64,000 nucleotides of DNA from Aureococcus anophagefferens (taxonomy: Eukaryota > Sar > Pelagophyceae > Pelagomonadales > Pelagomonadaceae), in the NCBI RefSeq assembly GCF_000186865.1, contig NW_008705570.1, positions 777,044 to 841,043 of the forward strand, read 5' to 3'. Made by a program: the position numbers and the translations under genes. Below are positions 30,019-59,895 of this stretch, one piece after another. Position 1 is the stretch's first letter; each line of letters starts with the position of its first letter. The notes beneath the pieces were generated by a model. It ran no database searches and was not told the DNA's origin. It saw nothing but the letters and a program-made list of their open reading frames with translations.

Positions 30019-33000
30019 ATGCGGGCGGGCGCCGCGGCGCTCGCCCTGGCCTGGGCGGCGGCCGGCCGGCCCGCGACCGTGGAGGTCTCGCCGCGCGGCG
30101 ACGCGCGGCGGCTGCGGGAGACGTCCGTCGCGGACCCGAGCGTGCCCGGCCGCGTGCGGACGTCCGCCGTGGCCGTCGGCGCCAACCTGAGCGGCTGCGC
30201 CTTCGTCGGCGAGGTCAACCTCGGGGCGACCATGGACATGGACGTCGTCTCCGACGCTTTGAACCACGGCGCGCTCGCGGCGGAAGCCTACCGGCGGCTC
30301 GCGGACGAGGCGAACCGGCCCCCGCGGTGCGGCGTCTACGTCAACGGCAGCGCGGGTCTCGGCCGCTACGCCGTCGCGGCCCACGTCTACGACGCCGTCG
30401 ACGGCAAGGGCGCCTACTACGGCGACGCGCCGCTGCGGCTCGCGCCGCGGGACCTCACGGTCGACGGCGCGGACCGCGCGTTCGCGACGCCGTTCCACGT
30501 GGACCCGGACCTCGACGTTTCGGGGCTCGTCAAGGTCGTCCCGACGAACAACTCCCTCATCATCTCCGCGCTGGGGCAGATCCTGACGGAGCTCGAGCTG
30601 TCGAACGTGACGTTCGTGTTCGACGAGAGCCAGGAGGACTGGGGCGGGGGCTGGGACGACGTCGACGCGTACCTGCTCGACAGCTGGGGCGTCGTCGCGA
30701 CGAAGCTGACGACGGAGGAGCTCGTCGCGGACGTCACCGTCGTGGACGCGTCCCACCTGCTCGTCGTCGCGTCGTACGACCCGGACTCGTGCGAGGCCGA
30801 GATGGACGCGCTCGACGCCGGCAGGCTCGCGCCCCAGGCCCAGCTCTTCGTGAGCTGCCTCGACGGCCTCTTCGCGAAGGAGATCGTCCGCGGCTTCGCG
30901 GGCCAGACGGAGCGGTCCTACGCGGGGCAGGAAAAGAGTGCGAAATTCCCAACTTCAAAGGCTCCTATCTCGGCCGTTTTCCACTCGTTTCGGCTGATTT
31001 TTGGACGAGCGATCATCTCTCGGAACGGTCTCGAAGCGTGGATGCTTTTTTTGGAACTCGCGCGCGCGGAACACTCATGTTGAAGCGAACTTGAATCACT
31101 CTTTTCCTGCCCAGGTCCTACGAGGTCGACGCGTGGCACGACCGCGTCGAGGCCGTCGACGGCCTCACGGGCGAGTCCGCGGGCACGCTCCTGGATCGGC
31201 TGGGCACGTCCTACGACCTCGACTGGGACCCGCTCTCCAGCGAGACGGCGGTCTACGCGCTCGCGGCCTTGTCCGCGACGCTCCAGGCGCTCGAGGGGTC
31301 CCTCGCGAGCGTGGACGCCGACGATCTGAACGCGCGGCTCCTCGCGTGGCTCGCGGACCAGCCGGCCGTCGCGACGGCGCTGGGCAACCTCACCTTCGAC
31401 GCCTCGGGCCAGGCGTCCGTCGCCCGCGCGCCCGTGAGCCAGTACACGGCCGAGGCGGAGAAGAAGCTCGTCTGGTACTACGGCGCGGCCGAAAGCGCGT
31501 ACCTCACGTGGGACCAGGCCGAGTGCGTCTACAGCCACAACTGCAGCAACGCGGGCGACTGCCAGGGCGACGGCACCTGCGCCTGCCGCGACGGCTTCAG
31601 CGGCGACGAGTGCGCCGTCAAGAACTGCGCGCCGGGCTCCTACTACACGGCCCCGTCCGGTAAGACCCCGACGGACCCGCCCGTCTGCGAGACCTGCGAG
31701 CCGGGCACGTTCACGGACGCCTACGGCTCCGACAAGTGCCGGATCTGCGACCTCTACTCGTACGCGCCGGACGCGGGCGCGTCGTCCTGCCTGAGCTGCC
31801 CGGCGAACTCGAAGCGCTACCCGCCGTCGGCCATCGACTTGGCCGCGCTCGCGTCCTTCGACGGCGACGCCATCTTCGAGTTCCTCATCTCGCACGCGAC
31901 GTCCGCGTCCCACTGCATCTGCGAGATGGGCACCTGCGAGGGCAAGCACTGCTTCCAGCCCCTGGGCGAGGATGGCGTCGCCTCCAAGTGCGACTTCACG
32001 GAGTGCGCCGAGCCCATCGCGGGCACGGGCGCGTACTCGCCCGCGGCGGCCGTCTTCGACGGCGCGATGACGTGCTACGAGTGCCCGAAGAACGCCTACT
32101 GCCGCGGGGCCTTCGACCTCCCCATCCCCGTCAAGGGCTTCTCCGGCGTGAGCACGGTCGACGTGTCCCGGAAGAAGTTGTTGACCTGGGAGCACCCGCT
32201 GCGCATGGACCGGTGCGCGTCGTACGAGGGCGACTGCCAGGGCAACTACAACTGCCCCGGCTCCAAGGCCCAGGGATCGCTGCTCTGCCAGGCGACGCGC
32301 GCGGGCTTCACGACCGTGGGCGACATGGTCATCGAGTGCCCCGCGGGCGCGACGGGCGTCGTCTTCCAGCTCCTGCTCTCGGGCGGCCTCGTCGCCGCGT
32401 TCTTCGTCGTGACGCACTTCTCCGACAAGTACGAGGCCGTGGGCATTTTTTTGACGCACGCGCGGTCCATCTCCATCATCGCCCAGGTCGACGTGAACTG
32501 GCCCAAGGACCCGCTCCTCGCGCTCTTCTTCAACTTCATGGCCGCGACGCAGTTCGACGTCGACATCGCGCCGCCGCGCTGCTTCTTCGCCAAGTGGGGC
32601 TTCATGGAGCGCATCTTGGTCCAGCTGTTGCTGCTGTTGTTCATGTTCGGCTTCTACTTTTTTTTCTCCTACCTGCCGACGTGGTACCGGCACCGCGGGT
32701 CCGGCCCGGAGCTCGTGCGCACGGCGTGGAACCACCTCCTCAAGTTCTGCATCGCGTCGCTCGTCATGACCTACCCGAGCTTGTGCGAGGTGTCCATCGC
32801 GTCGATGATCTGCAAGGAGTTCGACGACGGCGGCGCGTACCTCGCGCAGGACCTCGAGATGCGGTGCTGGACGGAGACGGAGCACACGCGGCAGCCAGGG
32901 CAGGACAAGAGAGCGAAATTCCCGACTTCAAAGGCTCCGATCTCGGCCGTTTTCCACTCGTTTCGGCTGATTTTTGGACGAGCGATCATCTCTCGGAAGG

Positions 33001-34912
33001 GTCTCGAAGCCTGGATGCGTTTTCCGGAACGCGCGCGCGCGGAACACTCACGTTGAAGAGAACTTGAATCACCCTTTTCCTGCCCAGGCGGCAGCACCGC
33101 GTCGTCGCGTCGCTCGGCTTCGTCATGACGCCGTTCCTCATCGGCTTCCCGCTGTGGATCTACGCCGTGCTCGTGACGAAGATCAAGCGCAACGAGCTCA
33201 TGTCGACGGACAGCCTCGAGCGCTACGGGCCCATGTACAGCGGCTTCAAGCCCCACATCGCGTGGTGGAGCGCCGTCGAGATCGCGAAGCAGCTCACGCT
33301 CGAGGCGCTGAACCAGATCCTGCGCCCCCTGGGCCCGGGCATCACGCTCTGGGCCTACGTGCTCATCCAGTTCATCCACGTCGTGTCCATGGCCGCCTAC
33401 GACCCCTTCCTCCACGCGGGCGAGAAGGGCCTCGAGAGCGCGCTGCTGTCGACGGCGGTCGTCGTCATCGCGTCGGCGAGCCTCTTCGCGTACTACGGCG
33501 ACGAGCCGAGCCGCCACGAGGAGCAGCACATGCTCACGGTGTCCTACATCGTCGACGGCTGCCTCATCGTGTGCCTCTACATCACCTACTCGGTGGTGAA
33601 GACGAACATCCGCGCGCGGAACTCCAAGGACAAGCTCGTCGCCAAGCTCACGGCCCTCTACGACGAGGTCCTCGCGGACAAGCCCAAGCCGAAGCGCGCG
33701 AGCCTGCTCGACAAGATGAACGACCTGAAGCGCCCGTCCATCAAGACCCTCGCGGACGTGCGGAACTCGCTGGAGGCGGTCGTCAAGGGCGACGACAACA
33801 CGGGCAACTACTTCGCGGACCCCGATTCCGAGTTCTACCAGACCTTCTGCTCCGAATGTTTCCTGAAATGGGTCGACCAGGCGGATCCGAAGGACCCGAA
33901 GACCAAGGAGCTCCTCGAGGACATCCTCTACGTCAACGAGCACCTGCTCGAGGCCTACTGCCGCGACGACGCGGAGTTCGGCACCTACGCCGTGTCCGCG
34001 GAGGCCGAGGTCTGGCAGAAGCTCATCGCCGCGTTTCCCAATTTGTTCGAGTGGCTCGTGACGGACCCCTCCGAGGCGCAGATCGCGGACTTCAACGCGC
34101 TCATCGAGAAGCTCGCGAGACTGCGGCGCCACTACGGCATGGGCTCCACGACGTCCGTCGACCCGGACTGGACCTTCCGGAAGCACTACGGCCGCCAGGC
34201 GCGGTCGCTCGCGACGACGGGCAAGTTCCAATCCGACGCGCCGCAGGACAAGCCCTTCATGCGCCTCATCCACAAGGAGGACCGCGCGACCATCGTCTTC
34301 GCGCTCTGCTCCGTCGACAAGGCCGTGCGCGAGCGCTTCTTCCGGCTCCTGTCGAACGTGCGGCTCGGCCAGTCCATGGACCCGCTCGACGGCGGCGAGA
34401 ACGTCCTGGAGCACTTCGCGCCGGACCCGGACTGCGACGCGGGGCCCCCGATGAGCCTGGAGCTGCCGCTACGGGGCGCGCAGGCGGCCCCGGGCAACAA
34501 GTCCGAAAAGCCGCACGCCTCCAAGCGCCGGCCGTCGTCGCCGGGTTTGGACGAGGAGAAAGACGAGGCCAAAAACCCGCCGCAGTTCCAGAAGCGGCGC
34601 TCGTCGTCCTCCTCCCGCAAGAGCCGCCGGGACCCGCCGCCGGAATCGGATTTATCAGAGCTGTCGGCCTTCTTTTTCTGCCGCGACGGCTCCCTCGGCG
34701 ACGACCTCAGGGGCCGCGCGCGTGTCGCCGCGCGCGCGTCGCCGCCGACGGTCTTCGGCTGCGACACCTACATCTGCGACGACTCCCACGACGCCCCCAA
34801 CGAGCTCAGGCTCGGCGCGCCGCCGTCGGCGCCGCCGAAGCGCCGCGGCAGCTCCCGGAAGAAGAAGCGCGCGTCGTCGGCGAAGGCGGAGGTCGCCTCG
34901 GACGTCCCCTGA
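30019..34912 (+). CDS. Giant receptor-like membrane protein, three exons made by two introners
   Basis: join(30019..30914, 31115..32887, 33088..34912) gives 1,497 residues in one frame; both introns are 200-bp introner insertions. After a signal peptide (ALALAWAAAGRPA), residues about 50-420 form a globular ectodomain with a PTNNSLIISALGQILTEL segment, reminiscent of type-1 binding-protein/ANF-like sensors but not certain. An EGF-like module follows at about 435-465 (CQGDGTCACRDGFSGDEC), then cysteine-rich GCC2/GCC3-like repeats, and a multi-helix domain from about residue 710. A long charged cytosolic tail (from about 1060) ends in Ser/Arg-rich sequence. The order matches the receptors at 14343-20416 and 51255-54829. 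A sensor or mechanoreceptor role is plausible; ligand and output are unknown. Confidence 0.85.
30923..31114 (+). mobile_element. Introner element, family A, copy 1 (192 bp)
   Basis: The ends are inverted repeats: GGGCAGGAAAAGAGTG at the left and CACTCTTTTCCTGCCC at the right. The 8-bp duplication GTCCTACG flanks it at 30915-30922 and 31115-31122. The intron runs from the left duplication's GT to the element's final CAG (30915-31114, GT-AG). Splicing restores Q-T-E-R-S-Y-E-V in frame. Confidence 0.95.
32896..33087 (+). mobile_element. Introner element, family A, copy 2 (192 bp)
   Basis: Ends are CAGGGCAGGA at the left and CCTGCCCAG at the right. The 8-bp duplication GCGGCAGC is at 32888-32895 and 33088-33095. 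The predicted intron 32888-33087 is GC-AG, because the duplication offers GC and no GT. Splicing restores E-H-T-R-Q-H-R-V-V. It lies in the membrane domain of the same gene as copy 1 and has the same orientation. Confidence 0.95.
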
Positions 34913-36926: not shown

Positions 36927-39900
36927 ATGCGGGCGAGCATCCTCGCCCTTGCGGCGACAAGGGTGGCGACGGACTGCCCCATGAGCGTGACGGTGGACGA
37001 CACGGCGTACACCTACGACCTCGACGACCAGTGGCGGAGCGTGCGGTGGGACCTCTTCGCGGCGCGGACGATGGTAGCGGCGCTGCCGGCCATCGCGGGC
37101 GAGGGCTGTACGGAGCGGGCGTGCACGGTGGACATCGTAGCGGAAGCGATGGTGCGGAGACGGGCGGAGTGCGACCGCGTCAACGCCGAGGTGCCCCGCG
37201 TGGCGCACCGCGTGTTCGCGGACCTGCGCAACGCGTCACAGGAGGCCGCCGGCGCGTTCGCGACGTGCATCCAGCTGAACCCGGCGTGGGAGTTTCGGGC
37301 GTGGGAGGACGCGGACCGGTGGCGGGAGCTGGGCGGCGTCCTGCTGGACGACGGCGCGGAGTGCGTCGCGCCGTTCGGCGGAGGAGACGCGGGCGGCGGT
37401 GCGTACGCGTTTGCGGGCGGCACCGCGGCGCCCCCGCATTTTTCCGGCGACGCACCTCGACGCGAGACGTACGCCGCCGTGCGGCCGGGCCCGCCGTTCC
37501 CGAAGGCGGGCGGCGCGCGGGTCAACGCCAGGGCAGGACAAGAGAGCGAAATTCCCAACTTCAAAGGCTCCTTTCTCGGCCGTTTTCCACTCGTTTCGGC
37601 TGACTTTTGGACGAGCGATCATCTCTCGGAACGGTCTCGAAGCGTGAATGCTTTTTCCGGAACGCGCGCGCGCGGAACACTCACGTTGAAGCGACGTTGA
37701 ATCTCTCTTGTCCTGCCCAGGTCGACGCGCGGCGCGGCCCGCTGACGAAGCTCAAGCAGTTTTTCGGAAGCGCGGACCCGGCGCGCTGCGCGCACCTCGT
37801 ACGACTGGCGGGCGCGCCGTCGACGGACCCGCGCCTCCCGGACGACGCCGCGCCGACGGTGTGCCTGGACGACCTCGAGCCGCCCTGCGTCGTCTACAGC
37901 TTCGGGGTGGCCGACAGCTGGACCTTCGACGACTTCGCCGCCGCGCGGGGCTGCGAGGTTTTTAGCTTCGACCCCGCCATGGCCCGGCAAGGCTCGTTTC
38001 GGAGGGGCGCGTCCATTCGCTTTGAGCCCGTGGGCGTCGGCAACGAGACGCTGGAATTTTACGACGGGTCCGACTCGACGTCGCTGTTCGGCGGCGCCGC
38101 GACGGGGTACCCCGTCGAGACGCTCGCCGACATCATGGCGCGACATGCCCACCCCTTCGTGGACGTGGTGCGGATGGACATCGAGGGCGCGGAGTGGCCC
38201 GTGCTCGCCGAGATGCTCCACGGCTCCGTCCGTAGAATCGGCCAGCTGCTCCTCGAGGCGCATTTTTGGGACGAGATCCGGGACAACGCTTCGGTGTCTT
38301 CGCTGAAGGCGATCGAGGCCCTCCCGCTGCTCGAGGCGCTGCCCCTCGACCTCTTCGCCCACGCGGTAAATTCGTACGACGCGACGCTCCTGGACGAGGA
38401 TTTGACTCGCATCCACGAGCTCGGCTTGCGGCGGCCGCCCCCGACGCCCCGCACCTCGACGTGGGCGGTCCTCGGGGGGGGCATCGGCGGCTTCATCGTG
38501 GCGTCGACGGTCTCGGCTCATGCCTCGGCGGAGCTCGCGCTCGTCGGTACGCGCTCTTCCGCACACTGCGCCGCGAAGTGGGGCGTGCCGACGTCGCACT
38601 GCGTCGGCTACGAGGAAGCCGCGACCGCTCTCGTGGACGTCGTCTCGGTGCACGTGCCCACGGCCTTGAAGATGGCGTGGGCGCTCGAAGCGTGCGTCAA
38701 CGGGAGCGCGAGGGTCGTGCTCGTCGACAAGCCGTTTCCGTCGCTCGCGGCCGTCGCGGAGCTGAGGCGAGCGTGCGCGCGGCGCGGCGCCCACGTCGCG
38801 GACGGCGCGGCCTTCCCGTACTCGGCGGCGCTGTCCGAGGAACTGGGCGGGCGCCCGCGCCGCGCCTCCTACGCGTTCCACCTCGACCTGTGGCCGGAAC
38901 GCGACGCGACGCGCCGCCGGCCGCCGGCCGACGCGGTCGACTACCGGGGCGCGCCGGGCCGCCTCGACCCGGCGCGGGAGCCGTCGGGCATCTTCGGCGA
39001 CCTGGCGTACTACGCGTTCCTCGGGCTCGGGGCGGCGCTCGGGGAGGACATGCCGGACACCGTCGAGTGCCGCGCGCACCGCTTCGACGCCGAGACGGGC
39101 GCCGCCGTCGACGTATCCGGAAGGCTCGGGGCGAACGCCACGTTCTCGGTCTCCTACGCGGCGGCGACGCCGCGCGACGAGCTCGAGGTCCTCTTTGAGG
39201 CCGGCGGCGTGGTCGCGAGCGGCGTCGTCGGCGGGGGCGATCGTCTGAACGTCCTGCGCCACCGCTTCGCCGACGGTACGACGTCGGACGCCGTCTTCGA
39301 GCGTACCCAGCCGCGCCACGGGGCCGCGGCGAAACTCGTGGAAGCGCTGTCCAAGCTGTCGATAGGCGACCGTTCGTCGGCCGCGGCGCGCGGCGCCGCG
39401 AGGAGAGCAGAGCGAGCCCAGGCCCTCGTCGACGCGTGCGCGCGCTCCGCCGCGACTTACGACGGAGGCGCCGACCGCCGCGGTCCGAGCGCGGCCGTCC
39501 CGCGCGCGGCGGAGTACCTGCACGCGGGCGTCGCGGCGCTCGACGCGCCTCACTTGTCGCCCGGACTCCTCGCGGAGCTCCGGCTCGGCCTGGGCGCGGC
39601 GTTGGTATCGCGACCGCGATCCGTCGTCTACGACGACGCGCAACGGCCGCGGCTCAAGACGTCGCTCTGCTCGCGCTGGGAAGGCACGCGGCGGCCCTGT
39701 GCTGCGTTGGGTCGAAGCGCCCTCTCCACCAAGCTCGTCGACGCGATGAGGGAAAGCATCCTGCCGGCGGCGATCGCCGCGGTCGGCGCGCCGTGCGAGC
39801 TGCTATCGGTCAGCGTGGACGTCGCCGGGGGTTTGAGCAGAGCACAGCACCCGCACTGGGACCCCGTTCCCGCGCAGTGGGATGAAAAGAGCGTGCATTA

Positions 39901-40234
39901 TGTGTTTGTGCCCCTCGACGACGTGGATGAGGTGAACGGCCCGCTGGAGGCGTGGCCGGCGACCTCCGATAGACGCGGCGACGCGCTCGCCGAGCTGGCG
40001 GGGATGCCGGTCGCTGCCGCGTGGCGCCGCGGGGGCGGGCCCCTGCAGGCGTGGCCGGTGGACGATGAAGCTGAGGCGTACTTTCGGAGCGTCCCATCTG
40101 CGACGCTCGTAACTAAGGCGGGCCTCGCCTACCTCGCGCGGCCGATCGTCTGGCACCGCGGCTCGGCCAACTCGAAGTTTGCGGCTCGCTTCGTCGCCAC
40201 GGTTATTCTGCGAGAGATACCGCCAGGGGGCTGA
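36927..40234 (+). CDS. Multidomain sugar-modifying fusion: glycosyltransferase-like, methyltransferase, oxidoreductase, dioxygenase
   Basis: join(36927..37520, 37721..40234) gives 1,035 residues; the intron is an introner. Four parts can be seen. (1) Residues 1-195: a short GT32-like segment (LNPAWEFRAWEDADRW). (2) About 250-400: an FkbM/METTL24-type methyltransferase (CVVYSFGVADSWTFDDF, VVRMDIEGAEWPVLAEML). (3) About 446-730: a Gfo/Idh/MocA-like NAD-binding oxidoreductase (WAVLGGGIGGFIVAS, then VVLVDKPF). (4) About 880-1035: a PhyH-like Fe(II)/2-oxoglutarate dioxygenase (HPHWDP with an H-x-D pair, then VWHRGSANSKF). The parts suggest tailoring of a sugar or glycan. The first part lacks a clear DxD and may be non-catalytic. 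The gene abuts a glycosyltransferase-like gene tail-to-tail. Confidence 0.8.
37529..37720 (+). mobile_element. Introner element, family A, copy 3 (192 bp)
   Basis: Ends are CAGGGCAGGA at the left and TCCTGCCCAG at the right. The flanking 8-mers are GTCAACGC (37521-37528) and GTCGACGC (37721-37728), one base apart, as expected for an aged duplication. The intron 37521-37720 is GT-AG and phase 0, giving A-R-V-D-A-R. The internal core has one substitution (TGACTTTTGG). Confidence 0.95.
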
Positions 40235-42233: not shown

Positions 42234-44323
42234 TTAGTCGTCGCGCGCTTTCTCGGGCGTGGTCTCTTCGGCGGGGTCCGACTCGAGGGGGTCGACGCCG
42301 TCGCGGAGGTCGCCGGTGAGCTCGTCGCGGTCGAGGCAGCGTAGCGTGACGACGGCGTCGACGCGCACGTGCGTGTTGAGGATGCCGCCCCAGACGACGA
42401 GCCGCGACGCGTCGTCGATGGTCTCGGCGTCGACGCCCGTCGTGAAGCGGACGCCGTCCTCGGGCGGCGACGGCTGCATCTGCGCGTGGCCGCGGGCGCC
42501 GCCGGCCTTGAGGCGCTCGGACTCGCCGCGCGCGACGGAGCAGAGGAGCAGGTGCTGGCGCCCGGCCGCGTCCGGCGACGCGTAGGTCGGGTCCAGGGCC
42601 ATGAGCCCCCGGCGCCGGCCCGCGGGCGAGAAGTAGGCGCCGACGCCGTAGACGGACGCGTTGCGGTCGCGGAGCACGAAGCCGTGGCCCGCGATGGGCG
42701 CGCACGCGCCGAGCGTCGTCCCGTGGAAGGCCTTCGTGACGTTGGGCGGCTCGCCCCGCGCGGCGAACTGGTCGACGGCGAGGTCGAAGAACGCGCCGCG
42801 CTCCGCGTTGCGCACCGCGTGGACGGCCAGGATCACGACCGGCGGCTCCGTCGACGCGATCTTGCGCGAGACGCCCCGGGGGGCTCCCGCGATCATGCGC
42901 GCGACGCCGCGGGCGACGCCGCGGACGCCGTCGAGCGCCGGCGCGAGCGACGTGCGCACGAGGGCCGCGGCGTCGAGGAAGGCGTGCGAGTCCGCGGCGA
43001 GGCGCTCGAAGCGCGGCGCGGGCAGGGCCGCCTCGAGCGTCGCGCCGCGGGACGTCAGCGCGTCGCGGTCGACGTCGCGCGTGCCGTCGCCGCGCCGGCA
43101 CTCGAGGCCGCCGCAGCAGAGCACGGGCGGCTCGTACGCGCGGCCGGCCGCGGTCATGAACGACACGGACCGCTCGTAGCCCGACGCCGCGCCGCCGGCC
43201 GCGGACGCGGGCTGCGCCTTGACCTGCTTGAGCTCGCCGCGCGGGCCGAGGTAGAGGTCGTACCGGGCGCCGCCGGACTCGAAGGACACGGCCGACTTGC
43301 CCCGGCCCCGGACGAGGCGCTCCGCGCACGCCGCGGGCGACTCGCGCGGCTCGGCCTTTTGCGCGAGCCTGTGTGGAATTCAAATCTTCAACTCGACTTC
43401 AATGTGCGCGTAACCGAACGATTTGGACCAGACTCTTTCGCTGTGCTTCGAGAACTCGACGAGAGCGATCGATTCGTCCAAAAATCAGCCGAATCGACTT
43501 CGATTTGATTGAGATAGAGAGTTCTGAAGTTTGGTGGGGACCCCCCAAACCAGTGGTTGATTTCCACACAGTGCGCGAGCCACGCGTAGACGCGCTGGGC
43601 CGCCGCGGGCTCGAAGGGCTCCCAGCGCGGGCGGCAGGTGCCGTCCTTCGGGCCCGCGTCGAGCTCGAGGTACGCGAGGCCGAGCGCGGCCGCGAGCGGC
43701 GGGAGCCGCGCGGCGCGCGCCGCCTCGAGCCGCCGCGTCGCCGTCGCGTAGAAGCCGCTCGCGACGCCCGCGGCGGCCGCGGCGGCGACGACGCGGTAGT
43801 GGCCGTCGGCGCCCTGCGCGAAGCCGAGCGCCGCGAGCAGGTCCACGGCCGCCGGCGTCGCGAAGTTCCGCCGGAACGCGTCGCTCCGGCCGTTGAGCCG
43901 CCAGGCCTTGGGCGCGTCGTCGCGCGCGTTCCGGGCGACGCCGCGGGCCGCCACGAGGATCTTCGAAAGCGCGGGCTCCGCGACCTCCGCGACGACCTTG
44001 TCGACGGCGGCGTCGAAGGCCGCCGCGCGCGAGAGCGCCGCGGCGGCTCCGAGCTCGCGCGCGTCGGCCTCGAACGCGTCGCGCTCGGCCCGCGCGCGAC
44101 CGAGCGCCTCGTCGACGGCGTCGCGTTGCCGGCGCGTCTCCTCGAGCTCCGTGCCGCGAGCGGCGTTGGACGCCGTGACCATCGCGTGCTCCCGCTGCAG
44201 CGAGTCGAGCCGCCGCGCGAGCGCGACTTTCGCGTCGCGCTCCTTCTTGTGCTTGTACTGGAGATAGAGCAACATAAAGACCGCCAGGGGCCACCACAGC
44301 GAGATGACGTCGTGCAGAGACAT
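42234..44323 (-). CDS. Membrane-anchored PARP-like protein with PUB- and WWE-like regions
   Basis: Exon 1 is 44323-43581 and exon 2 is 43368-42234, giving 625 residues; the intron is a family-B introner. A single membrane helix near the start (LWWPLAVFMLLYLQY) is followed by a coiled coil (about 25-90). A PUB-like helical module lies at about 110-180 (RLNGRSDAFRRNFATPAAVDLL). A WWE-like segment is at about 220-290, split by the intron. A PARP catalytic domain occupies about 380-590, with FHGTTLGA near 463 and YGVGAYFS near 490, the H and Y of the ADP-ribosyltransferase signature. The third catalytic position is uncertain, so it may be a mono-ADP-ribosyltransferase. It would face the cytosol from an endomembrane. 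Confidence 0.85.
43369..43572 (-). mobile_element. Introner element, family B, copy 1 (204 bp)
   Basis: In the gene's sense, the left end is CTGTGTGGAAATC and the right end GAATTCCACACAG, an inverted pair. The duplication GCTCGCGC is at 43580-43573 and 43368-43361. The predicted intron 43369-43580 is GC-AG and yields Y-A-W-L-A-Q-K-A-E. One extra base lies between the duplication and the element's first C. Confidence 0.95.
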
Positions 44324-44468
44324 GTTAGTCGAGGGTAGACTGAATATCCGCGCCCGACTCTGCCGAGTCTTTTGCCGCTTCACCATCTCTTCAAGCGCAC
44401 TGATAACGAACGCGCGGGCGAGGCAGCATCGAGGTCGAGATGACTCAAAATATCCACGCTCGCCGATT

Positions 44469-45911: not shown

Positions 45912-47735
45912 ATGTGGGGCGGCAACAGGCTCGTCCTGCTGTGGGCGACGCTGCTGCTGCGGACCGCGGGCTATGCGCCTCGCCGCGTCCCCGGCATCGC
46001 GCCGGCGCGCGTCGCGCACCGGCTCCCGTCGCTGGACCGCCTGGCGCTCGCGGCGACGAGCGACGACGGCGACGCGCCGCGCGCCCGCGCGCCCAACGAG
46101 AGCGGCGACCAGCCGCCGCGGCGGCGGCCCGAGGGCAACGGCGGGCGCGGCGGCCGCGGCGCGGGCGCGGGCGCGGCGGCGGGCGCGGCGACGGCGGCCG
46201 CGGCCGCGGCGACGGCCGGCCGCGGCCCGCGCGGCGGCGGCAGCCGCAGAAGCCCCGGCCGAAGCAGGCCGAGGAGGCCGAGGTGGAGACGAAGAAGGAG
46301 ACGGTCATCGGCGGCCCCGCCGCCGCCGGCGCCGTCGCGCCCTGGGCCAAGTCGCGGAAGCGGCGGCCCGGCGGCCCCCGCGACGACGGCAAGGCCGCCG
46401 TCGCCGGCGGCGCGCGCGCGGGCCAGGCCGCCGTCGCCGGCGGCGGGCGCGCGGGCCAGGCCGCCGCCGCCGGCGGCGGGCGCGCGCAGCGCATGCCCGG
46501 CGCGCCCCCGCGGGGCGCGAACCCGAACCCGAGGCGGCGGCGGCGCCGCGGCGGGAATCGCACGAAGACGGAGCAGCAGCCGCAGCAGTCGGCGACGCGG
46601 CGCTGCGTCTGCGGCTACTGCGGCGAGATGTTCGTCAGTCGCTCGAAGCTCTTCCGCCACCTGCGCGAGCTCAACGACTGCCGGAAGATCGCTTTGAGCC
46701 ACGGCATGCCCCTGGAGAATCCCATCAAGGCCGTCGAGCGGCGGCTCCGGCGGCGCTACGGCGATTTGCTCTTGGCCGGGTGCATCGTGCTGCGCGTCAA
46801 GCCGGATATGGCGTCGGAGCCGCGCTTGATCGCCTTCCGCAAGAGCCCCCGGGGTCTGCTGCTGGGCAAGGGCGACGTGAGCCCCTACGAGTGCGTCATC
46901 GTCCGCGGCAACGAGGGCAAGCAGAAGCCGGGCTTCCCGAAAGGCAAAATCGAGCCCGTCGACGGGTCCATCTTGGGGGCCGCGCTGCGGGAGACCTGGG
47001 AGGAGGCGGGGTTGAAGGCCGACCAGCTCCGGGTGCTGCCCGCGTCCGCGGAGGCCGCGGCGAACGCGTCGGTGTGTCTGGACGCGGACGACTCGCGCAT
47101 GTTCGCGGACGACGAGGAGGTCATGTTGGACGAGACGTCGGACGTCATCGTCAGCGACGAGTCGCCGGCGCCGGCCGAGGACTTCCCGGACCTCGACGAC
47201 GACGTCGACGCCGCGGATCTGGATCGGGACGCCGCGGACGACCGGCGCTACGCGTCCGTCGACGTCCGCGAGGTCACGGGCCGGTCGGGCAAGCGCGCGC
47301 GCTACTTCGTCTGCGGCTTATCGGAAGCGCCGCGGAGCCCGCCGAAGCTGACGACGCAGAACGACGTCGACGGCGACATCGCCGACGTGTCCTGGGTCGA
47401 CGTCTGTGTGGAAATCAAATCTTCAACCCGACTTCAATGTGCGCGTATTCGAATGTTTTGACACGAGCACTTCCGCCGTGCTTCGAGAACTCGCTGAGAG
47501 CAATCGATTCGTCCAAAAATCAGCCGAATCGACTTCGATTTGACCGAGCTAGAGAATTCTGAAGTTTGGCCCCGACGTCCCAGCTCACTGGTTGATTTGC
47601 ACACAGGTCGACGTCAACGCGGCGCTGCTGCTCCTCGAGCGCAAGCGGCGCGCGGCGCTCCGCCGCGCCGTGCTCATCTTCGCGGCCGACGAGCGCGCGC
47701 TCGCGACGCAGGCGACGCGCGACCAGGCGCCCTAA
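45912..47735 (+). CDS. Nudix hydrolase, probably organelle-targeted, with an introner
   Basis: The start is at ATG 45912, followed by a signal-like helix (LVLLWATLLLRTAG) and a transit-like basic segment. The frame of this N-terminus changes by +2 near 46200-46260, in a Gly/Arg-rich stretch, to the frame of the catalytic part. No clear intron explains this. A small zinc-finger-like segment follows (CGYCGEMF...LFRHLRELNDC). A Nudix domain at about 46700-47400 contains RETWEEAGL preceded by FPKGKIEPVDG, close to the Nudix box. An acidic insert follows, then the final exon 47607-47735. The intron is 47396-47606. Nudix enzymes cleave nucleoside diphosphate derivatives. The acidic insert and zinc-finger-like segment are atypical. 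Confidence 0.75.
47404..47606 (+). mobile_element. Introner element, family B, copy 2 (203 bp), opposite orientation
   Basis: The left end CTGTGTGGAAATC and right end GATTTGCACACAG are an inverted pair. The duplication GTCGACGT is at 47396-47403 and 47607-47614. The intron 47396-47606 is GT-AG, phase 0, restoring S-W-V-D-V-N-A. Relative to the host gene it lies in the opposite orientation to family-B copy 1, as shown by the core TCGTCCAAAAATCAGCCG at 47509-47526. Confidence 0.95.
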
Positions 47736-47744
47736 CATACACGA

Positions 47745-50855: not shown

Positions 50856-50886
<31 letters not shown>

Positions 50887-51254: not shown

Positions 51255-54200
51255 ATGTTGCGTGGAAGGATGCGCTCAATGCTCGCCCTCGCGACGCTCG
51301 GCGCCGCGGCCGCGAGCTCCTACGCCGAGGAGTCGGCGGCCTGCGCGGCGGCGGGCGGCGCGGCGCGCGTCGCCGAGGCCGACCTGCCCGACGACGGGAC
51401 CTGCTTCCAGTGGGACGGCGTCGAGCTCGCGAACCGGAGCTACTGCCAGCCCTGCCTCAACGGGTCCTACTGGGACGAGTTCCGCGACGCGCGCGCGGCG
51501 TCGCGGCGCGCGGCGGCGACCGCGGCCCCCGTGGTGGTCGAGATGCCCTACTGGCTCAGCGGCCAGTTGCAGGCGTCGGCGATGCGGATCCTCCTCGAGG
51601 AGGTCCTGGGCTACGCCGTGCACATCTCCCTCGCGTCCGCGGGCAGCGGCAGCACGGCCCGCGTCGCCGCGGCCTGCGCGACGCTGGTCCCCGAGTTCTG
51701 GTACTCCGAGGGCATCCGCAAGCCCGAGTTCGAAGAAGCAACAAAAAGCGGCGCGGTCGCGAAGAACCAGGGCGCGCTGGGGCAGACGCGCCTCTTCGTC
51801 ACGGCGTCGGCCGCGGACCCGCCCTACGACAAGCTCATCATGGACCACTACCGCTCCATCAAGCTGAACCCGGCCGTCGTCGCCGCGCTCCCGGCGGCCG
51901 GGAGTTGGGGCGCGCCGGACGCCGCCGCGTGCGGCGGCGCGGGCTGGACGAACGCGTCCTGCGTCAACGGCACCTACGCGCCGCCGAACTGCGACCACGG
52001 GACCTGCGCCGAGGCCTACTTCGTCCTGCCGTCCTGGTCCGAGTCGTGGTACGAGGGCTTCCTCACGGCCGAGGGCCTGAACCAGGGCAGCACAAGAGTG
52101 CGACATTCCCAACTTCAAAGGCTCATATCTCGGCCGTTTTCCACTCGTTTCGGCTGATTCTTGGACGAGCGATCATCTCTCGGAACGGCCTCGAAGCGTG
52201 GATGCTTTTTTTGGAACGCGCGCGCGCGGAACACTCACGTTGAAGCGACGTTGAATCACTCTCGTGCTGCCCAGGCCTGAACGTGACCGCGACGTACGTG
52301 GGCGTGTCGGGCATGGCCGACGTCGTCGAGGCGGCCCACAACGCGTCGCGGCCCGTGCTCTTCTACTGGTGGGACCCGGACCCGCTCGTCGCGCGCGTGC
52401 CCGTGCTGCCCTTGGCCGCGACGCCCTTCTCGTCCGCGTGCGAGGACCGCCACGCCGGCGACCCGGCGCTCTCCGGCGCGAACTGCCTCATGAACGTCGA
52501 CATGCTCAAGGCCGTGGCCCACGCGGCGACGCTCCAGGCCGACGCGAGCCTGGCGACCTTCTTCGCGGGCTACGGCGCGGACAACGACCGGCAAAAGGCC
52601 ATGATGGCCCTGGAGACGCGCGGCGGCGGCGACCTGGGGGTCGAGGACGCGGCGTGCGCCTGGGTCCGGGCGAACGAGCCGGCCTGGCGCGCCTGGGTCA
52701 CGGCGACGACCTGCGCGCCGGGGTCCGTCGTCGGCAACGGCACGGGCGACTGCGAGGCCTGCGCCGCGGGCAGTTACGCGGCCTTCGGGGCCGACGCCTG
52801 CGAGCCCTGCGCGCCGGGCTCCTTCGCGGCGGACGCCGGCGCCGCGGCCTGCGACCCCTGCCCCCAGGGCACGGCCGCGCCGACGACCGGGCGCGCGTCC
52901 TGCGACGGCTGCGTCGCGGGCGAGTACGCGACGTCCGCGGGCGAGACCCCGGGCATCGGCCTCACGTCCGGCGCGACGACGTGCGCCTTGTGCCCCGCGG
53001 GGACGCGGAGCGTCGCCGGCGCGAGCTTCTGCGCGCTCTGCGACTTTTCGCTGGGCTTCACAAGCGCCGAGGGCTCGGAGGTCTGCGACTCGTGCTACCC
53101 CGAGTTCTACTGGACGGGCGCGGCCTGCGAGCCCTGCCCCGGGCGCGCGACGTGCGCCGCCGGCACGACGACGGCGACGCTCGACGTCGAGGAGGGCTGG
53201 TGGCGCCTCGACGAGACGTCGACGGACATCTTGGAGTGCGCGCCGGACACGTGCGCCGGCGGCGTCGGCGTCACGGGCGCCGACGACTCGCCGGCGGACG
53301 CGTGCGAGCGGGGCTACCGGGGGCGGCTCTGCTCGCTCTGCGACGACGACTTCTACCTCGCCAGCAAAAAGTGCGAGTCCTGCGAGGGCCGGGGAGGTGA
53401 GAAACTCGCCATCGCCATGGGGCTCCTCGCCTACGGCGCCCTGAGCCTCCTCGTGCTCTACACGTCCCAGAGGCCGTCGGCGGCGGAGGAGCGGGAATTC
53501 GAGGACGCGGAGCACGAGCGCGAGGAGCGCGCGAGCATGGGCGCCGACGCCGCGAGCATGGACGCCGCGGCGACCGCCGAGCTCAGCGAGGCCGTCGACG
53601 ACCCGGCGGCCGACGAGGCGCGCAGGCCCGCGGAGGCGATCCGCGTCCACGTGATCCGCATGTACGCGAAGCTGACGACGAAGTGGAAGCTCGCGTTCGT
53701 CGCGATCCAGCTCATGGTGTCGACGATGGGCACGATGGAGCTGCCCCCGGTCTACAACGGCTTCCTGGGGAGCCTGGGCTTCTTCGAGGTCGACTTCCTG
53801 GAGATCGCGGGGCTCGGCTGCCACCGGCGCGTGTCGTTCTACGGGACCCTGGCGATGTCGACCTTGGGGCCCTGGGCCTTCCTGCTGTCCGTGTTCCTGC
53901 TCTGGGCGCCGCTGTCCTACCTCTGCTGCGGGCGCCGCCACTCGCCGACGGCGGCGACGATCCTCGTGCTCTTCTTCACGTTCCCCATGGTGTCGGTGAC
54001 GATCTGCCGGACGTTCCTCTGCTGCGAGTTCGACGACGGCGACGCGTACCTGCGCGCGGACCTGGACCTGCGCTGCGGCGGGCGGACCTACGACTTCTGG
54101 CGCGCCTACGCGGCGTGCATGCTCTTCGTCTGGCCCCTGGGCGCGCCGCTGTTTTTTTACCTCTCCGTGTGGTCCGTGCGGTCGCGCGTCGACCCGCTGA

Positions 54201-54829
54201 ACTTCAAGAAGGGCGCGGAGATCACCGCGAGCGAGCAGGTCGCCATGGTCGACGCGGCCTGCGAGAAGCGCGACCTGGACCCGGCGTGCTTCGCGACGCG
54301 CATGCTCTGGATGCCCTACGAGCCCCAGTTCTGGTACTTTGAGTGCGTCGACGCGACGAAGCGGCTCCTGCTCACGTGCGCGTCGCTCTTCATCTTCCCG
54401 GGCAGCCCGACGCAGCTGGCGTTCCTGATTTTGGTGGTCATGAGTTGGACGAAGCTCTACGGGTACTTCGGGCCCTTCAAGGAGGACGCGGACGACGTGC
54501 TCGCGGAGTGCCTGAACTCGATGCTCACGATCCTCTACCTGGGCGCGCTCGTCGCGCGGACGTCGCAGGGGCCGGGCGCCGATGGCCTGCTCATGACGAC
54601 GATCCTGGGCGGGCTCGTGATTTTGGTCTACGTGACGGTGACGGACATCCGCCGCGAGCTGTCCGCGCTCGAGCTGCTCCGCGACATCCTCCGCGAGACG
54701 GGCAGGAACGCGCGCGCGGCGTCGTTCAAGGCCATGGAGAGCTTCAGGTCGCTCCCCGGGGCCTCGCCGCGGGCGACGCCGAAGCACAGCGACGTCGCGC
54801 GCGCGGACGCGGCCGCGACTCCGATCTAA
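51255..54829 (+). CDS. Giant receptor-like protein with OpuAC-like ectodomain and an introner
   Basis: join(51255..52074, 52275..54829) gives 1,124 residues. The start is ATG 51255 with a signal peptide (MLALATLGAAAASSYA). Residues about 90-345 resemble a type-2 periplasmic binding protein of the glycine-betaine (OpuAC) class: VVVEMPYWLSGQLQASAM, VPEFWYSEG, then NASRPVLFYWWDPDPL. The N-terminal part is split by the introner. GCC2/GCC3-like cysteine repeats lie at about 420-640, and a multi-helix membrane domain runs from about 650 to the end, with a helix-linking charged loop. The membrane part resembles that of the receptors at 14343 and 30019 (shared CEFDDGDAYL / CKEFDDGGAYL segment). A solute-sensing role is inferred, not shown. 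Confidence 0.85.
52083..52274 (+). mobile_element. Introner element, family A, copy 4 (192 bp)
   Basis: Ends are CAGGGCAGCACAAGAGTG at the left and CACTCTCGTGCTGCCCAG at the right, a long inverted pair. The duplication GCCTGAAC is at 52075-52082 and 52275-52282. The intron 52075-52274 is GC-AG, phase 1, giving A-E-G-L-N-V-T-A. The core carries one change (TGATTCTTGG). Confidence 0.95.
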
Positions 54830-54836
54830 TGGGAAC

Positions 54837-55805: not shown

Positions 55806-55868
<63 letters not shown>

Positions 55869-56434: not shown

Positions 56435-56718
56435 CTCCGGACGATTACACGTCGCTCCGCGGCGCGTCCTCCGGGTACGTGAAGAGCCAGGCCCCGCGCC
56501 GGTACCGGGCCGGAGCGAGAGCCCGACGACGGCGCCGAGGAGGACGCCGCGCACGAGGCCGAGCACGACGGGTCGCGCCGGCTCCGTTGTGGCGGATCGG
56601 CGAGCGGTGCATCGAGCAGTGCATCGACTCTCCTGTGCGCCAAGGGCGCGCCAAGGGCGTCGTCGCGCCGCTCATCGTGTGCGCGCGCCGCCGCGAAGCG
56701 CTGCAGCCCCAAGCAGAC

Positions 56719-57630
56719 ATGTTCAGCCGCCAGCTCTTGAACGGCGAGCACGAGGAGGACCTTGGCATCGGGAAGCAGGAGGCGCTGAGCATGTTCGACG
56801 TCATGGACCGCGACGCGCCGCCGCCGCCGAAGGTCGAGGCGCACGAGGCCGCGGAGGTGTCGTCGGCGCAGCGCGACCTGCAAAAGCTGCTGGGAACGCT
56901 CGGAGCGACCGCGCGGGGTCGCCTGGTCGCCGACGACTACGCGCCGGCGCCGGCGGAGAAGCTCGTGTTCTTCATCCGCCACGGCGAGGGCCGCCACAAC
57001 GTCGCGCAGCGCGACTGGCGCGCCGCGAAGAAGGCCGGCGAGCCCTACACGGTGGACAACGACCCGGACTTTGGCTACGTCGACGCGGAGCTCACGGAGG
57101 TGGGTCGGAAGCAGGCGGAAGCGCTCCGGCCGCGCTTCGCGCGGCTCGAGGAGCCCCTGGACTTGATCGTCACGTCGCCCATGCGCCGGGCGACGCAGAC
57201 GGCCTTGTACGCGCTGGACCACATCTGGATCGCGAAGATCCCCGTCGTGGCGCACGAGGACTGCCACGAGACCGGCGGCAGGCACACGTGCGACAAGCGG
57301 CTCTCGAGGACGGCGCTGGAGAAGTACTTCCCGCCCTACGACAACCTCGAGGGCGAGCCCTACAAGAGCCGCGTCGACTACGCGCAGCTCGAGAGCGAGG
57401 AGGACCCGCTCTGGCACCCGGAGAAGCGCGAGGGCAAGCGCGCGATCTGCAAGCGCGCCGCGCGCTTCGTGGCCTGGCTCGGGCAGCGGCCGGAGACGCG
57501 CGTCGCCGTCGCCGCCCACTCGGGCTTCCTCCTCGCCCTCTTCAACGCGGTGCTGGACCTGCCGGACGACGCGCGGGGCTGGTTCGGCACGGGCGAGTGC
57601 CGCGCGGTCGCGCTCACCTTCGCGACGTAA
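56719..57630 (+). CDS. Histidine-phosphatase-superfamily protein (phosphoglycerate-mutase-like)
   Basis: A 303-residue frame from ATG 56719. The catalytic start FFIRHGEGRHN holds the RHG phospho-accepting motif near residue 90. SPMRRATQTALYAL provides the second Arg, and AVAAHSGFLLALF the second catalytic His. Plant and fungal proteins of this branch are broad-specificity phosphatases rather than true mutases. There is no targeting signal. Its stop codon directly abuts that of the P-loop kinase-like gene (57630/57631). Confidence 0.85.
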   Translation: MFSRQLLNGEHEEDLGIGKQEALSMFDVMDRDAPPPPKVEAHEAAEVSSAQRDLQKLLGTLGATARGRLVADDYAPAPAEKLVFFIRHGEGRHNVAQRDWRAAKKAGEPYTVDNDPDFGYVDAELTEVGRKQAEALRPRFARLEEPLDLIVTSPMRRATQTALYALDHIWIAKIPVVAHEDCHETGGRHTCDKRLSRTALEKYFPPYDNLEGEPYKSRVDYAQLESEEDPLWHPEKREGKRAICKRAARFVAWLGQRPETRVAVAAHSGFLLALFNAVLDLPDDARGWFGTGECRAVALTFAT

Positions 57631-59895
57631 TTACTGCTGGGCGCAGCGGCCCGCGGGGGCGTCCTTCATCGCCTCGGCCTCGCGGCGCCGCAGTCCCGCG
57701 ACCTCGGCCTCGAGGTCGGCGATCTTCGCGTCGCGCGCGGCGACGGCCGTCTGGAGCTCGGCCACGCGGCCCTTCAAGCGCTCGGCCTCGGCGACGGACG
57801 CGACGTAGTTCTGGGGCGGCTTCTCCTCGCGGGACCCGTCGAGGACGAGGGCCGTCGACGTGCGGCTGCCGTTGGCGTAGACGTCCATGGCGACGCTGCC
57901 CTTCACTTTCGGCGTGCCGCGGCGCTCCGCGTCCTCCGTCTTCCGCCGGAGGTCCGGCGACGGCGGCGGCTCGGGGCAGGCGACGCGGTGGAGGGGCGAC
58001 CTGTCGGCGCCCGTGGACGACGCGAAGGGGTTGTTGAAGACGGGCCGGGGCCGCGCGGGCCGGCGGTCGCCTGGCGACGTCCGCGGGCTCCCCGGCGAGC
58101 CCGGCGGCGTGCGGCCCGCCGCGCGCGGCGACGGCGGCACGGACGGCGCGGGGATGCCGTAGGTGCCGCCGAACATGTGGGCGACGACCTTCCAGGAGCC
58201 CGTCGTGTCCACGGACTCGAAGGCCTCCAAAATCGGCGCGTCGCCGTCGTTGTCGATGCGCGCGACGAAGTCGACCTTGGGCGGCAAGAGGGTGATTCAA
58301 CGTCGCTTCAACGTGAGTTTTCCGCGCGCGCGCGTTCCGGAAAAAGCATCCACGCTTCGAGGCCGTTCCGAGAGACGATCGCTCGTCCAAAAATCAGCCG
58401 AAACGAGTGGAAACCGGCCGAGATAGGAGCCTTTGAAGTTGGGAATTTCGCACTCTTTTGCTGCCCTGAAGTCGACCTTGGGCGTCAGCGCCCGCAGCAC
58501 GTGGGGCGGCGCGGCGATGGAGTCGGCGAGGGACTGCTCGGGCACGTGCCGCTCGCCGACGCGCGCCGCGCGCGTCTTGACGCGCGCGCGGACCGTCGCC
58601 TCCTTCGCGTGGACGTAGAAGAGCGCGATCTTGTACGTCGGGTGCTTCGCGCGGAGCTCGTCGAACTCGCGCTCGTACCAGCCGTGGTCCCGCAGGGACC
58701 CGTCGACCCAGACGTGGAGGCGGTGGCGCATGGCCAGCTCCTGGGCGAGCTCCGCGAGGAGGCCGCTCTCCTTGTGGCACCGGGTCCCCGCGGACGCGGC
58801 GTCGCGGCGCACGTGGCCGGCCCACTCGGGCATCATCTGCTTGAAGCGGTCCGGGTCGATGTGGACGATGGACCGCAACGGTAAGATGTCGAGCGTCGAC
58901 ATCCAGTTCATGACCCAGCCCTTGCCCGCGCCCATCGCGCCGCACGTGAAGACGAGCCACGGGTGCTGGTTCGGCGCCGCGCACTCGCCGTGCTTCGGCG
59001 AGCTGCTCGCCGACTTGGGCGACGACCGGTCGATCTTCGGCGCGCAGCGCGCATTGAGGTCGAGGCCCGCGGGCAGGCCCACCGCGTGCGCGGCCGCGTC
59101 CTGCCAGAGCTGCCGCGCGTGGCCGTAGTTGCCGTGGTAGTCCGCGTCGAGCCGCGCGCGGATGTCCACGAGCTCGCCGACGAAGCCCGCGTCGAGGGGC
59201 GCGGCGTAGTTCTCCGTCGTCGACCGGTTGTAGTCGTAGCCCCGGGGCACGGCCCACGTCGTCGGCTCCGTGAACGTGTAGTGCGAGACGATGCGCCGGA
59301 GGAAGTGGTGGCGCCGGATGCCCGCCATGAACATGTCGACGTTGACGCGCGCGTCGCCGTCGGCGCCGCGCCGCAGGCCCTTCTGGGCGTCGGCGAAGCT
59401 CCGGCGCCGCCGCGGCGAGTCCGGCCCCGCGGATCCGCCGCTCGGTGGCGTCTTCGGGCTCGTAGGCGGCGACAGCATCCCGAGGGACGACGACGACGCC
59501 GCGCGCGGCAGCGCGCTGTCGTCGACGGAGACGAGGGACCGCGCGCCCGTCGCCAGCGCCAGGTCCTCGCCGAGCTGCGTGAAGAGGTTGTTGACCTCGT
59601 GGTCCGTCATGCCCAGCCCCAGGTCGCCGAGCAGCCCCCGGAACGTCGCCAGGTCCATCTGGCCCCCGGGCGCCGCGGCGAAGGCGTCGAAGACCATCTT
59701 CAGGTCGCTCGGCTCGACGACGCCCTTCGTGAACCGGCCTACGGAACGGACACATGGAACGCTTCGCCAGCGCGGGGCAGACGCCGCGCGCGGACTGTGC
59801 ATGCGCATGGATTTGCGCCGCGTCATGGCCGTCTTCGCCATGGGCTCCAGCGGCCGGGGCCGCGGCCGCACGCGCTCCGCCGCGGGCCGCTCCAT
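57631..59895 (-). CDS. P-loop zeta-toxin-like kinase-domain protein with EF-hand-like N-terminus
   Basis: Exons are 59895-58477 and 58275-57631, 687 residues; the intron is an introner. After a basic leader, residues about 60-110 form an EF-hand-like helical pair without strict Ca ligands. A P-loop (GAMGAGKG) starts an ATP-binding domain of the zeta-toxin type at about 300-470, with a following DPDRF segment. The C-terminal part is a Ser/Pro-rich linker and a coiled coil. Many eukaryotic and algal proteins with this fold are kinases of unknown substrate and are not known to act as toxins. No antitoxin partner is seen. It is head-to-head with the next phosphatase gene (218 bp). Confidence 0.8.
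58276..58468 (-). mobile_element. Introner element, family A, copy 5 (193 bp)
   Basis: In the gene's sense it starts CAGGGCAGCAAAAGAGTG and ends GCCGCCCAAG, so the usual CCCAG end is CCCAAG. The duplication GTCGACTT is at 58476-58469 and 58275-58268. A longer match (GAAGTCGACCTTGGGCG on the plus strand) extends beyond it on both sides. The intron 58276-58476 is GT-AG, phase 0. Confidence 0.9.

What the first reader, a model, noticed from the sequence alone, without database searches (positions are those of the whole stretch)
30915..58476. Seven splicing-competent introner elements of two families in one 64-kb window
Five family-A copies (192-193 bp) and two family-B copies (203-204 bp) all sit inside coding exons of six genes. 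Each has terminal inverted repeats and an 8-bp flanking duplication. Removing the predicted intron restores the uninterrupted reading frame every time, with total CDS lengths divisible by three in the five hosts whose frame is otherwise intact (4494, 3108, 1878, 3375 and 2064 nt). This is direct sequence evidence of intron creation by DNA-transposon insertion.
Basis: partly seen in the sequence, partly recalled or inferred. Interest (0 to 1): 0.95.

Follow-up and report, generated by a model that had tools for sequence, protein, structure and literature searches.

The report
Known introner transposons making algal introns
In what looks like a brown-tide alga, short DNA transposons that land inside genes are built so that the cell's splicing machinery could cut them out again as brand-new introns, a phenomenon already published for this species, although how the two ends of the element fix its direction looks less well charted.

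Summary
Seven ~200-bp repeats sit in coding exons of six genes as stated. Each has terminal inverted repeats, an 8-bp target duplication, a co-opted GT/GC donor and its own AG acceptor; removing TSD copy plus element restores the frame. Proteins up to 98% identical to the hosts are labelled Aureococcus anophagefferens, in which such introners are described since 2016: the core finding is known.

Genome-wide samples add detail. Of 100 family-A copies 97 have GY at the donor copy of the duplication; all 89 with clear coding flanks lie in host sense. All 71 family-B copies examined have GY on one or both sides; where it is on one side only, the host strand agrees in 23 of 23 loci, one uninformative. 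Family A is directional: upstream end CA/CG, never CT (0 of 100), although its core lies in either orientation (70:30). B ends are symmetric and B works both ways. A and B share a mutually inverted homologous core. One empty/filled site pair was found (53683-53690), the filled allele inferred from a relative's protein. Splicing was not observed; no transposase was found.

The parts
30915..31114 (+). Introner A1 as intron: TSD copy 30915-30922 (GTCCTACG), element 30923-31114 (192 bp); second TSD copy 31115-31122
32888..33087 (+). Introner A2 as intron: TSD 32888-32895 (GCGGCAGC, GC donor), element 32896-33087; second TSD 33088-33095
37521..37720 (+). Introner A3 as intron: TSD 37521-37528 (GTCAACGC / GTCGACGC, 7 of 8), element 37529-37720
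43369..43580 (-). Introner B1 as intron in a minus-strand gene: TSD 43573-43580 (GCTCGCGC, GC donor), element 43369-43572 (204 bp); the duplication could be read as 9 bp with a 203-bp element
47396..47606 (+). Introner B2 as intron: TSD 47396-47403 (GTCGACGT), element 47404-47606 (203 bp); second TSD 47607-47614
52075..52274 (+). Introner A4 as intron: TSD 52075-52082 (GCCTGAAC, GC donor), element 52083-52274; second TSD 52275-52282
58276..58476 (-). Introner A5 as intron in a minus-strand gene: TSD 58469-58476 (GTCGACTT), element 58276-58468 (193 bp, ends AAG)
30019..34912 (+). Host gene of A1 and A2 (1497 aa spliced; Ephrin_rec_like domain)
36927..40234 (+). Host gene of A3 (1035 aa spliced; FkbM methyltransferase domain in the downstream exon)
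42234..44386 (-). Host gene of B1 (646 aa spliced; PARP-like match below Pfam's cut-off; relative P0007 aligns without a gap over the junction)
46493..47735 (+). Host gene of B2 (343 aa spliced; NUDIX; weak C2H2 zinc finger)
51255..54829 (+). Host gene of A4 (1124 aa spliced; OpuAC match crosses the junction)
57631..59895 (-). Host gene of A5 (open frame over both exons by length count; PF06414 domain in the upstream exon)
53683..53690 (+). Empty target site: single GTGGAAGC, at which the relative's protein P0002 reads through a whole family-A introner flanked by two copies of GTGGAAGC (inferred from protein)

Best explanation
The seven repeats are introners: short non-autonomous cut-and-paste DNA transposons (MITEs), in a genome whose proteins point to Aureococcus anophagefferens. 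On insertion into an exon they duplicate 8 bp. The element end supplies the 3' splice site (..CCCAG in A, ..CACAG in B) and the upstream TSD copy supplies the 5' splice site (GT or GC), so removing TSD copy + element leaves exactly one TSD copy and the original reading frame. Shown: anatomy, target duplications, frame restoration, agreement of host strand with the spliceable side, one empty/filled site pair (filled allele from protein). Inferred: actual splicing, strong selection against unspliceable insertions, and mobilisation in trans by an unidentified transposase (hAT-like for A, by its CAGGG end and 8-bp TSD; recalled criteria). B has symmetric ends and can be an intron in either orientation. 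A carries polarity in base 2 of its terminal repeat: one end reads CCCAG and lies downstream, the other reads CA or CG (rarely CC or other) and lies upstream.
For: Seven of seven with TSD, TIR, GY..AG and restored frame. Pfam OpuAC match extends over the A4 junction after excision (E 9.7e-5 for the downstream exon alone to 3.6e-7; residues 267-405, junction 273); NUDIX score of the B2 host rises from 37.7 to 44.9 bits. Relative P0007 matches the spliced B1 host at 604 of 623 aligned residues with no gap at the junction. A: 100 copies, from 99 of the 100 listed ends plus one more (L089): first TSD copy begins GC 49, GT 48, GA 2, CC 1; TSD at least 7/8 in 96; 89 with consistent coding flanks, host strand = splice sense in 89 of 89; 2 of 100 noncoding-like against 244 of 1,000 random window positions by the same measure. 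B: 71 copies from the 100 listed ends, 71 of 71 with GY on one or both sides (window 8-mers 35.6%); in 30 loci, of the 23 with GY on one side only, all 23 have the host strand predicted, one of them (L020) with an uninformative score. Empty site at 53683 with the filled allele inferred from P0002. Species: P0001, P0008, P0009 are labelled A. anophagefferens.
Against: No RNA evidence was available. No transposase was found: PF05699, PF18758, PF12762, PF10551 and PF14291 gave no match in the own genome, though for PF05699, PF18758 and PF14291 no control genome rang either, so absence is not shown. NCBI models P0001 and P0009 include pieces of A4 and A1 as exon; missing GC donors could explain A4 and A2, but A1 has GT, and real alternative splicing is not excluded. 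In the mixed set, 2 of 62 A and 5 of 47 B coding copies did not read GY..AG: one is the window's own B1 with a misplaced boundary, one reads GA..AG, the others are diverged or misplaced and were not all resolved. B copies of that set are only a little more often in consistent coding flanks (47 of 68) than random positions (59.6%), unlike A (62 of 74). The PARP match of the B1 host stays below cut-off and does not gain on joining (23.9 to 22.6 bits). Near-absence of noncoding A copies is not explained by selection alone.
Confidence: 0.94

Rival explanations
1. Introns spread by reverse splicing of intron RNA into other transcripts, then reverse transcription and recombination, not by DNA transposition.
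For: A copies lie almost only in coding sequence and in host sense, as an RNA route would give.
Against: Reverse splicing leaves no locus-specific target duplication; here the first 8 intron bases differ between copies and equal the next 8 exon bases (96 of 100 at 7/8 or better), and the ends are inverted repeats. B copies lie in both molecular orientations relative to the host (27:20), which copying of an intron RNA would not give.
Confidence: 0.02
2. The GY at the duplication start is a target-site preference of the transposase, not a trace of splicing.
For: All 71 B copies and 97 of 100 A copies have GY, and the 2 noncoding-like A copies have GT and GC too; a partial preference cannot be excluded.
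Against: A DNA-level preference cannot know which strand is transcribed: 23 of 23 one-sided B sites (one uninformative) and 89 of 89 A copies agree with the host strand.
Confidence: 0.12
3. Ordinary MITEs that happen to sit in old introns (secondary insertion), no intron creation.
For: MITEs inside introns are common in general (recalled).
Against: The TSD lies in the exon and starts exactly at the donor; the element ends exactly at the acceptor; excision leaves one TSD copy. The empty site at 53683 is uninterrupted exon.
Confidence: 0.01
4. Family A comprises two independent polarised lineages (F and R core orientation) that each acquired the acceptor base at a different end, rather than one lineage whose core inverts between the ends.
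For: F/R is heritable (nearest-neighbour agreement 0.82 against 0.56 shuffled in 68 copies; 13 changes against 26 shuffled in 100 copies); the AU test does not quite reject one R clade (p 0.062).
Against: 0% of 200 bootstrap trees need a single change and starred branches force at least 2 (bootstrap rough, few branches well supported); some F and R cores differ at only 3 of 158 columns.
Confidence: 0.45

Closest known systems
Introners of Aureococcus anophagefferens and Micromonas pusilla (Huff, Zilberman and Roy 2016, Nature; paper not held, abstract recalled; described in PMC9860276, PMC10228655, PMC9481584, PMC7789003)
   Same: Same species by protein labels; short non-autonomous DNA transposons with TIRs and TSDs, splice sites co-opted, insertion in both orientations (PMC10228655 passage); direct repeats and TIRs of constant length (PMC7789003 passage); intron length around 210 bp named as characteristic (PMC9481584 passage)
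   Different: Whether families A and B, the base-2 polarity of A and the A/B core homology were described there could not be checked
Introners at large (Gozashti et al. 2022, PMC9860276; parts 1-3 of 7 and passages read)
   Same: [quoted passage not shown] enrichment in genes; GC donors up to 50.0% and GA up to 40.0% in families
   Different: Their Aureococcus sp. example (Fig. 2F legend) carries both splice sites and adds 12 bp; here the mRNA length is unchanged. GC donors in 26 of 42 coding-consistent B copies with GY..AG
hAT-superfamily MITEs (criteria recalled)
   Same: 8-bp TSD; the upstream end of A mostly begins CAGGG
   Different: B begins CTGTG; no hAT domain match in the genome; A's downstream end reads CCCAG, not CCCTG

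Membership tests
Introner (intron-generating transposable element) | Group of similar introns whose similarity runs to the splice boundaries, at unrelated loci | tested here: met
Introner (intron-generating transposable element) | Sits in coding sequence and excision restores the reading frame | tested here: met
Introner (intron-generating transposable element) | Locus-specific target-site duplication contributing a splice site | tested here: met
Introner (intron-generating transposable element) | Empty orthologous site in a relative | tested here: met
   one site, 53683-53690, not one of the seven; here the window is empty and the relative filled; filled allele inferred from protein P0002, its DNA not seen
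Introner (intron-generating transposable element) | Spliced out of mRNA | not testable with these tools
   no RNA-seq; only domain and homologue continuity
hAT non-autonomous element | 8-bp target-site duplication | tested here: met
hAT non-autonomous element | Terminal repeats of the YARNG type (recalled) | tested here: inconclusive
   A upstream end CAGGG/CGGGG; A downstream end reads CTGGG on the other strand; B reads CTGTG
hAT non-autonomous element | Autonomous partner with hAT transposase and same ends | tested here: inconclusive
   PF05699 and PF14291 no match, but no control genome rang; end patterns with a changed interior: the 12 B loci were short copies, the 9 A loci were not inspected one by one

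The most novel reading that the evidence does not exclude
In family A, intron polarity is encoded by a single base (position 2) of the terminal repeat: T (=AG acceptor) at the end that lies downstream (60 of 62; the search condition), A, G or C but never T (0 of 100) at the end that lies upstream, while the element core between the ends occurs in both orientations (70:30) among copies whose cores differ by as little as 3 of 158 columns. The core may have inverted repeatedly between the repeats, or the acceptor base arose more than once, turning a symmetric MITE into a directional intron by one substitution. The base-2 mismatch also leaves the acceptor A predicted unpaired beside the TIR stem (mean pairing 0.14 in 60 A copies, 0.87 in 42 symmetric B copies). 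B is the symmetric, bidirectional state with a homologous core.
Probability: 0.35. Interest if true: 0.6.

Novelty: already known. Interest (0 to 1): 0.36.

Why it matters
Introners are the best documented source of large-scale intron gain (PMC9860276), and this genome shows the mechanism in clean form. Two related families in one nucleus, one symmetric and bidirectional, one asymmetric and directional, make a natural comparison of what a transposon end needs in order to become a splice site. The near-even split of GT and GC donors in A (48 and 49 of 100) may help explain why the public gene models seen here handle some of these introns badly.

Tried and rejected
Autonomous partner: five transposase families and two end patterns with a changed interior gave none. 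Of the 12 B-like loci, 10 measured 147-208 bp between TSD copies; in L063 and L065 no second TSD copy was found but a far end is visible within about 210 bases. The 9 A-like loci were only used as further copies. Viral vector: a 20-mer core and a B-end pattern in IMG/VR gave 1 and 11 contigs; none aligns to an element beyond a short isolated match, the best being the 20-mer itself (E 1e-4); the tool may leave out records near this genome. First coding model picked antisense frames and was replaced. Hypothesis that upstream base A/G in family A is inherited: rejected, 24 changes against 23 shuffled; its weak links to TSD base 8 and host base +9 (p 0.01 and 0.02 among 65 tests) are probably chance. 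Hypothesis that A has one core orientation only, which I held after (loci picked with an F-type query), was overturned. An 18S identification failed because the server was busy; species rests on protein labels.

In one search the acceptor AG and a C at the element start were search conditions, so the 68-of-68 downstream T is by construction; the acceptor is fixed by the pattern and only the upstream base is free. For the 42 single B ends both sides were read off one TSD copy. In one search GY was counted at the second TSD copy (98 of 100); one search recounts at the first, true donor copy (97 of 100).
Full report
WHAT WAS CHECKED. The window is one stretch of contig C10 of a 49.05-Mb, 86-contig genome. 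Repeat search shows five copies of one family and two of another. Exact boundaries came from the sequence: elements of 192-193 and 203-204 bp, each between two copies of an 8-mer. If the intron is taken as first 8-mer plus element, it begins GT (4) or GC (3) and ends AG (7). All seven introns contain an in-frame stop and six of seven have a length that is not a multiple of three; excision gives open frames of 1497, 1035, 646, 1124 and 343 aa, the A5 host being measured only.

IS THE EXCISION BIOLOGICALLY SENSIBLE. The OpuAC match in the A4 host begins six residues before the junction after excision and its E-value improves from 9.7e-5 to 3.6e-7; the NUDIX score of the B2 host rises from 37.7 to 44.9 bits. 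The PARP match of the B1 host lies wholly downstream, stays below Pfam's cut-off and does not gain (23.9 to 22.6 bits). P0007, a protein of an unnamed ENA source, matches the spliced B1 host at 604 of 623 aligned residues with no gap there; whether its gene has the introner is unknown. By contrast the NCBI models P0001 and P0009 of A. anophagefferens carry pieces of A4 and A1 as exon, and P0009 loses eight residues before A2. A4 and A2 have GC donors, A1 has GT. I read this as gene-finder error, but cannot exclude alternative splicing.

WHICH ORGANISM. P0001, P0008 and P0009 are labelled Aureococcus anophagefferens, with 98%, 98% and 90% identity over the aligned parts, which cover 38%, 41% and 79% of the queries. 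No ribosomal RNA check was possible.

GENOME-WIDE, FAMILY B. The 40 matches to B2 that were scored, itself included, are 98-100% identical, so some copies are very young. The end GATTTSCACACAG occurs 1,012 times, the reversed control 0 times. Among the 100 listed ends there are 29 complete pairs and 42 single ends, 71 copies; 71 of 71 have GY on one or both sides of the TSD, against 35.6% of window 8-mers (for singles both sides were read off one copy). TSD copies agree at 7 or 8 of 8 in 26 of 29 pairs. The ends are a 15-bp inverted repeat, CTGTGTGSAAATCAA, so both ends give ..CAG. In 30 loci (one is the window's B2) the host strand, found with a codon model trained on the window, agrees with the GY side in all 23 loci that have GY on one side only, of which L020 has a negative and so uninformative score; 7 have GY on both.

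GENOME-WIDE, FAMILY A. The first sample beyond the window was all in one core orientation, but it had been drawn with such a query. The end pattern CNGGGCAGSAMAAGAGWGCGA (1,108 hits, control 0) listed 16 of 100 rows with CT and one with CC in place of CA/CG. Sixteen loci were fetched: 15 hold the 16 CT rows, one the CC row. The 16 CT copies have the core reversed, and their formerly upstream end now reads CCCAG and serves as acceptor; for one of them (L089) that script found no TSD. The CC copy (L095) reads as an ordinary F copy on the other strand. To avoid selection I then fetched 80 more of the 100 places listed for the acceptor pattern (603 hits, control 0), so that 99 of the 100 were in hand; with one extra copy (L089) this gives 100 copies: 70 F and 30 R, the extra one being R. 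First TSD copy GC 49, GT 48, GA 2, CC 1, the last with a poor TSD. TSD at least 7/8 in 96; upstream end CA 67, CG 26, CC 3, other 4, CT 0; 89 have consistent coding flanks (64 F, 25 R) and in 89 of 89 the host strand is the splice sense; 2 are noncoding-like. By the same measure 567 of 1,000 random window positions are coding-consistent and 244 noncoding-like.

A BROADER SET. Of 149 copies located by similarity, 142 could be bounded. With coding flanks, 60 of 62 A and 42 of 47 B copies read GY..AG in host sense; of the 5 odd B copies one is the window's B1 with a misplaced boundary, one reads GA..AG. Noncoding-like: 5 of 74 A and 5 of 68 B against 22.5% of random positions; but coding-consistent B copies (47 of 68) are hardly more frequent than random positions (59.6%), so a bias to coding sequence is clear for A and weak for B.

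A AND B ARE RELATED. Reversed A and B align over the core with score 50 against a maximum of 28 in 300 shuffles; the same comparison without reversal gives 22.

EMPTY SITE. In the A4 host the window reads ..AAGTGGAAGCTCGCG.. with one GTGGAAGC at 53683-53690. P0002, 98% identical in the aligned part by the search table, reads there a 64-residue insert that follows, apart from point differences, the translation of an R-type A copy flanked by GTGGAAGC on both sides, then the shifted frame of the downstream exon. The window is thus the empty allele and the relative the filled one. The relative's DNA was not seen, and its model is imperfect (it lacks a long stretch elsewhere).

POLARITY. Upstream base 2 in family A is never T, in both core orientations (0 of 68, 0 of 100; the two sets overlap). 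Core orientation is inherited (nearest neighbours agree at 0.82 against 0.56 in 68 copies), yet needs 13 changes on the tree (bootstrap 11-15), at least 2 by well supported branches (7 of 97 inner branches starred, bootstrap not settled); a single R clade is not quite rejected (AU p 0.062). Either the core inverts now and then between fixed ends, or the acceptor base arose at both ends in separate lineages. The choice of A or G upstream is not inherited (24 changes, 23 expected), so it is probably post-insertion decay; all 10 copies with G at position 7 are CG copies. In predicted RNA folds the TIR stem forms in both families (0.93 and 0.89), but the acceptor A is unpaired in A (0.14, 60 copies) and paired in B (0.87, 42 copies). 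An unpaired acceptor therefore cannot be a strict need.

PHASE AND DONORS. Coding-consistent copies with GY..AG: A phases 0/1/2 = 25/10/25, B 22/9/11; GT share 33 of 60 and 16 of 42, against 26% of GY in three host CDS.

HOW IT WORKS, SHOWN AND INFERRED. Shown by sequence: terminal repeats, 8-bp duplications, frame restoration, strand agreement, one empty/filled pair. Inferred: splicing, purging of unspliceable copies, cut-and-paste mobilisation in trans. Selection explains why copies in genes are spliceable, but not why noncoding A copies are so rare; insertion biased to genes or linker DNA (as reported by others, PMC9860276) is needed too. The source transposon is unknown.

COMPARED WITH WHAT IS KNOWN. 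Introners with TIRs and TSDs are published for this species. What I saw: PMC9860276 parts 1-3 of 7 and passages, PMC10228655 one passage stating insertion in both orientations, PMC9481584 passages, PMC7789003 passages, PMC12768974 passages on introners in viruses. Huff et al. 2016 is not held; its abstract is recalled. I did not meet the base-2 polarity or the A/B homology in these passages or in the listings of the searches, but the key paper could not be read, so no claim of priority is made.

VERDICT. Observation confirmed, interpretation supported, core already known; the end-polarity detail is the part worth a specialist's look.

Noticed in passing
P0001, P0009 against window 52075-52274, 30915-31114 and 32888-33087: Public A. 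anophagefferens gene models include introner pieces as exon or lose exon pieces beside them, so introns of this kind may be partly mis-annotated.
   Followed up: partly
L059 1501-1647; own genome C2:537942-538122 and C2:664136-664319: Shortened B derivatives of about 147-166 bp that keep both ends.
   Followed up: no
window 58268-58490: At A5 the duplication with its neighbours forms a 16-base direct repeat (GCCCAAGGTCGACTTC), because the host flank happens to resemble the element end; A5 also ends AAG instead of CAG.
   Followed up: no
own genome C1:2490550-2490821: Two A introners have acceptor ends 245 bp apart in one region (L086), the kind of spacing that others link to nucleosomes.
   Followed up: no
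window 16334-18234 and 27408-28437: Two long arrays of imperfect repeats (mostly 48-bp and 12-bp spacing).
   Followed up: no
window 58477-59895 (-): The A5 host exon carries PF06414, which Pfam names Zeta toxin, with an overlapping AAA_33 match, in what looks like an ordinary algal gene.
   Followed up: no
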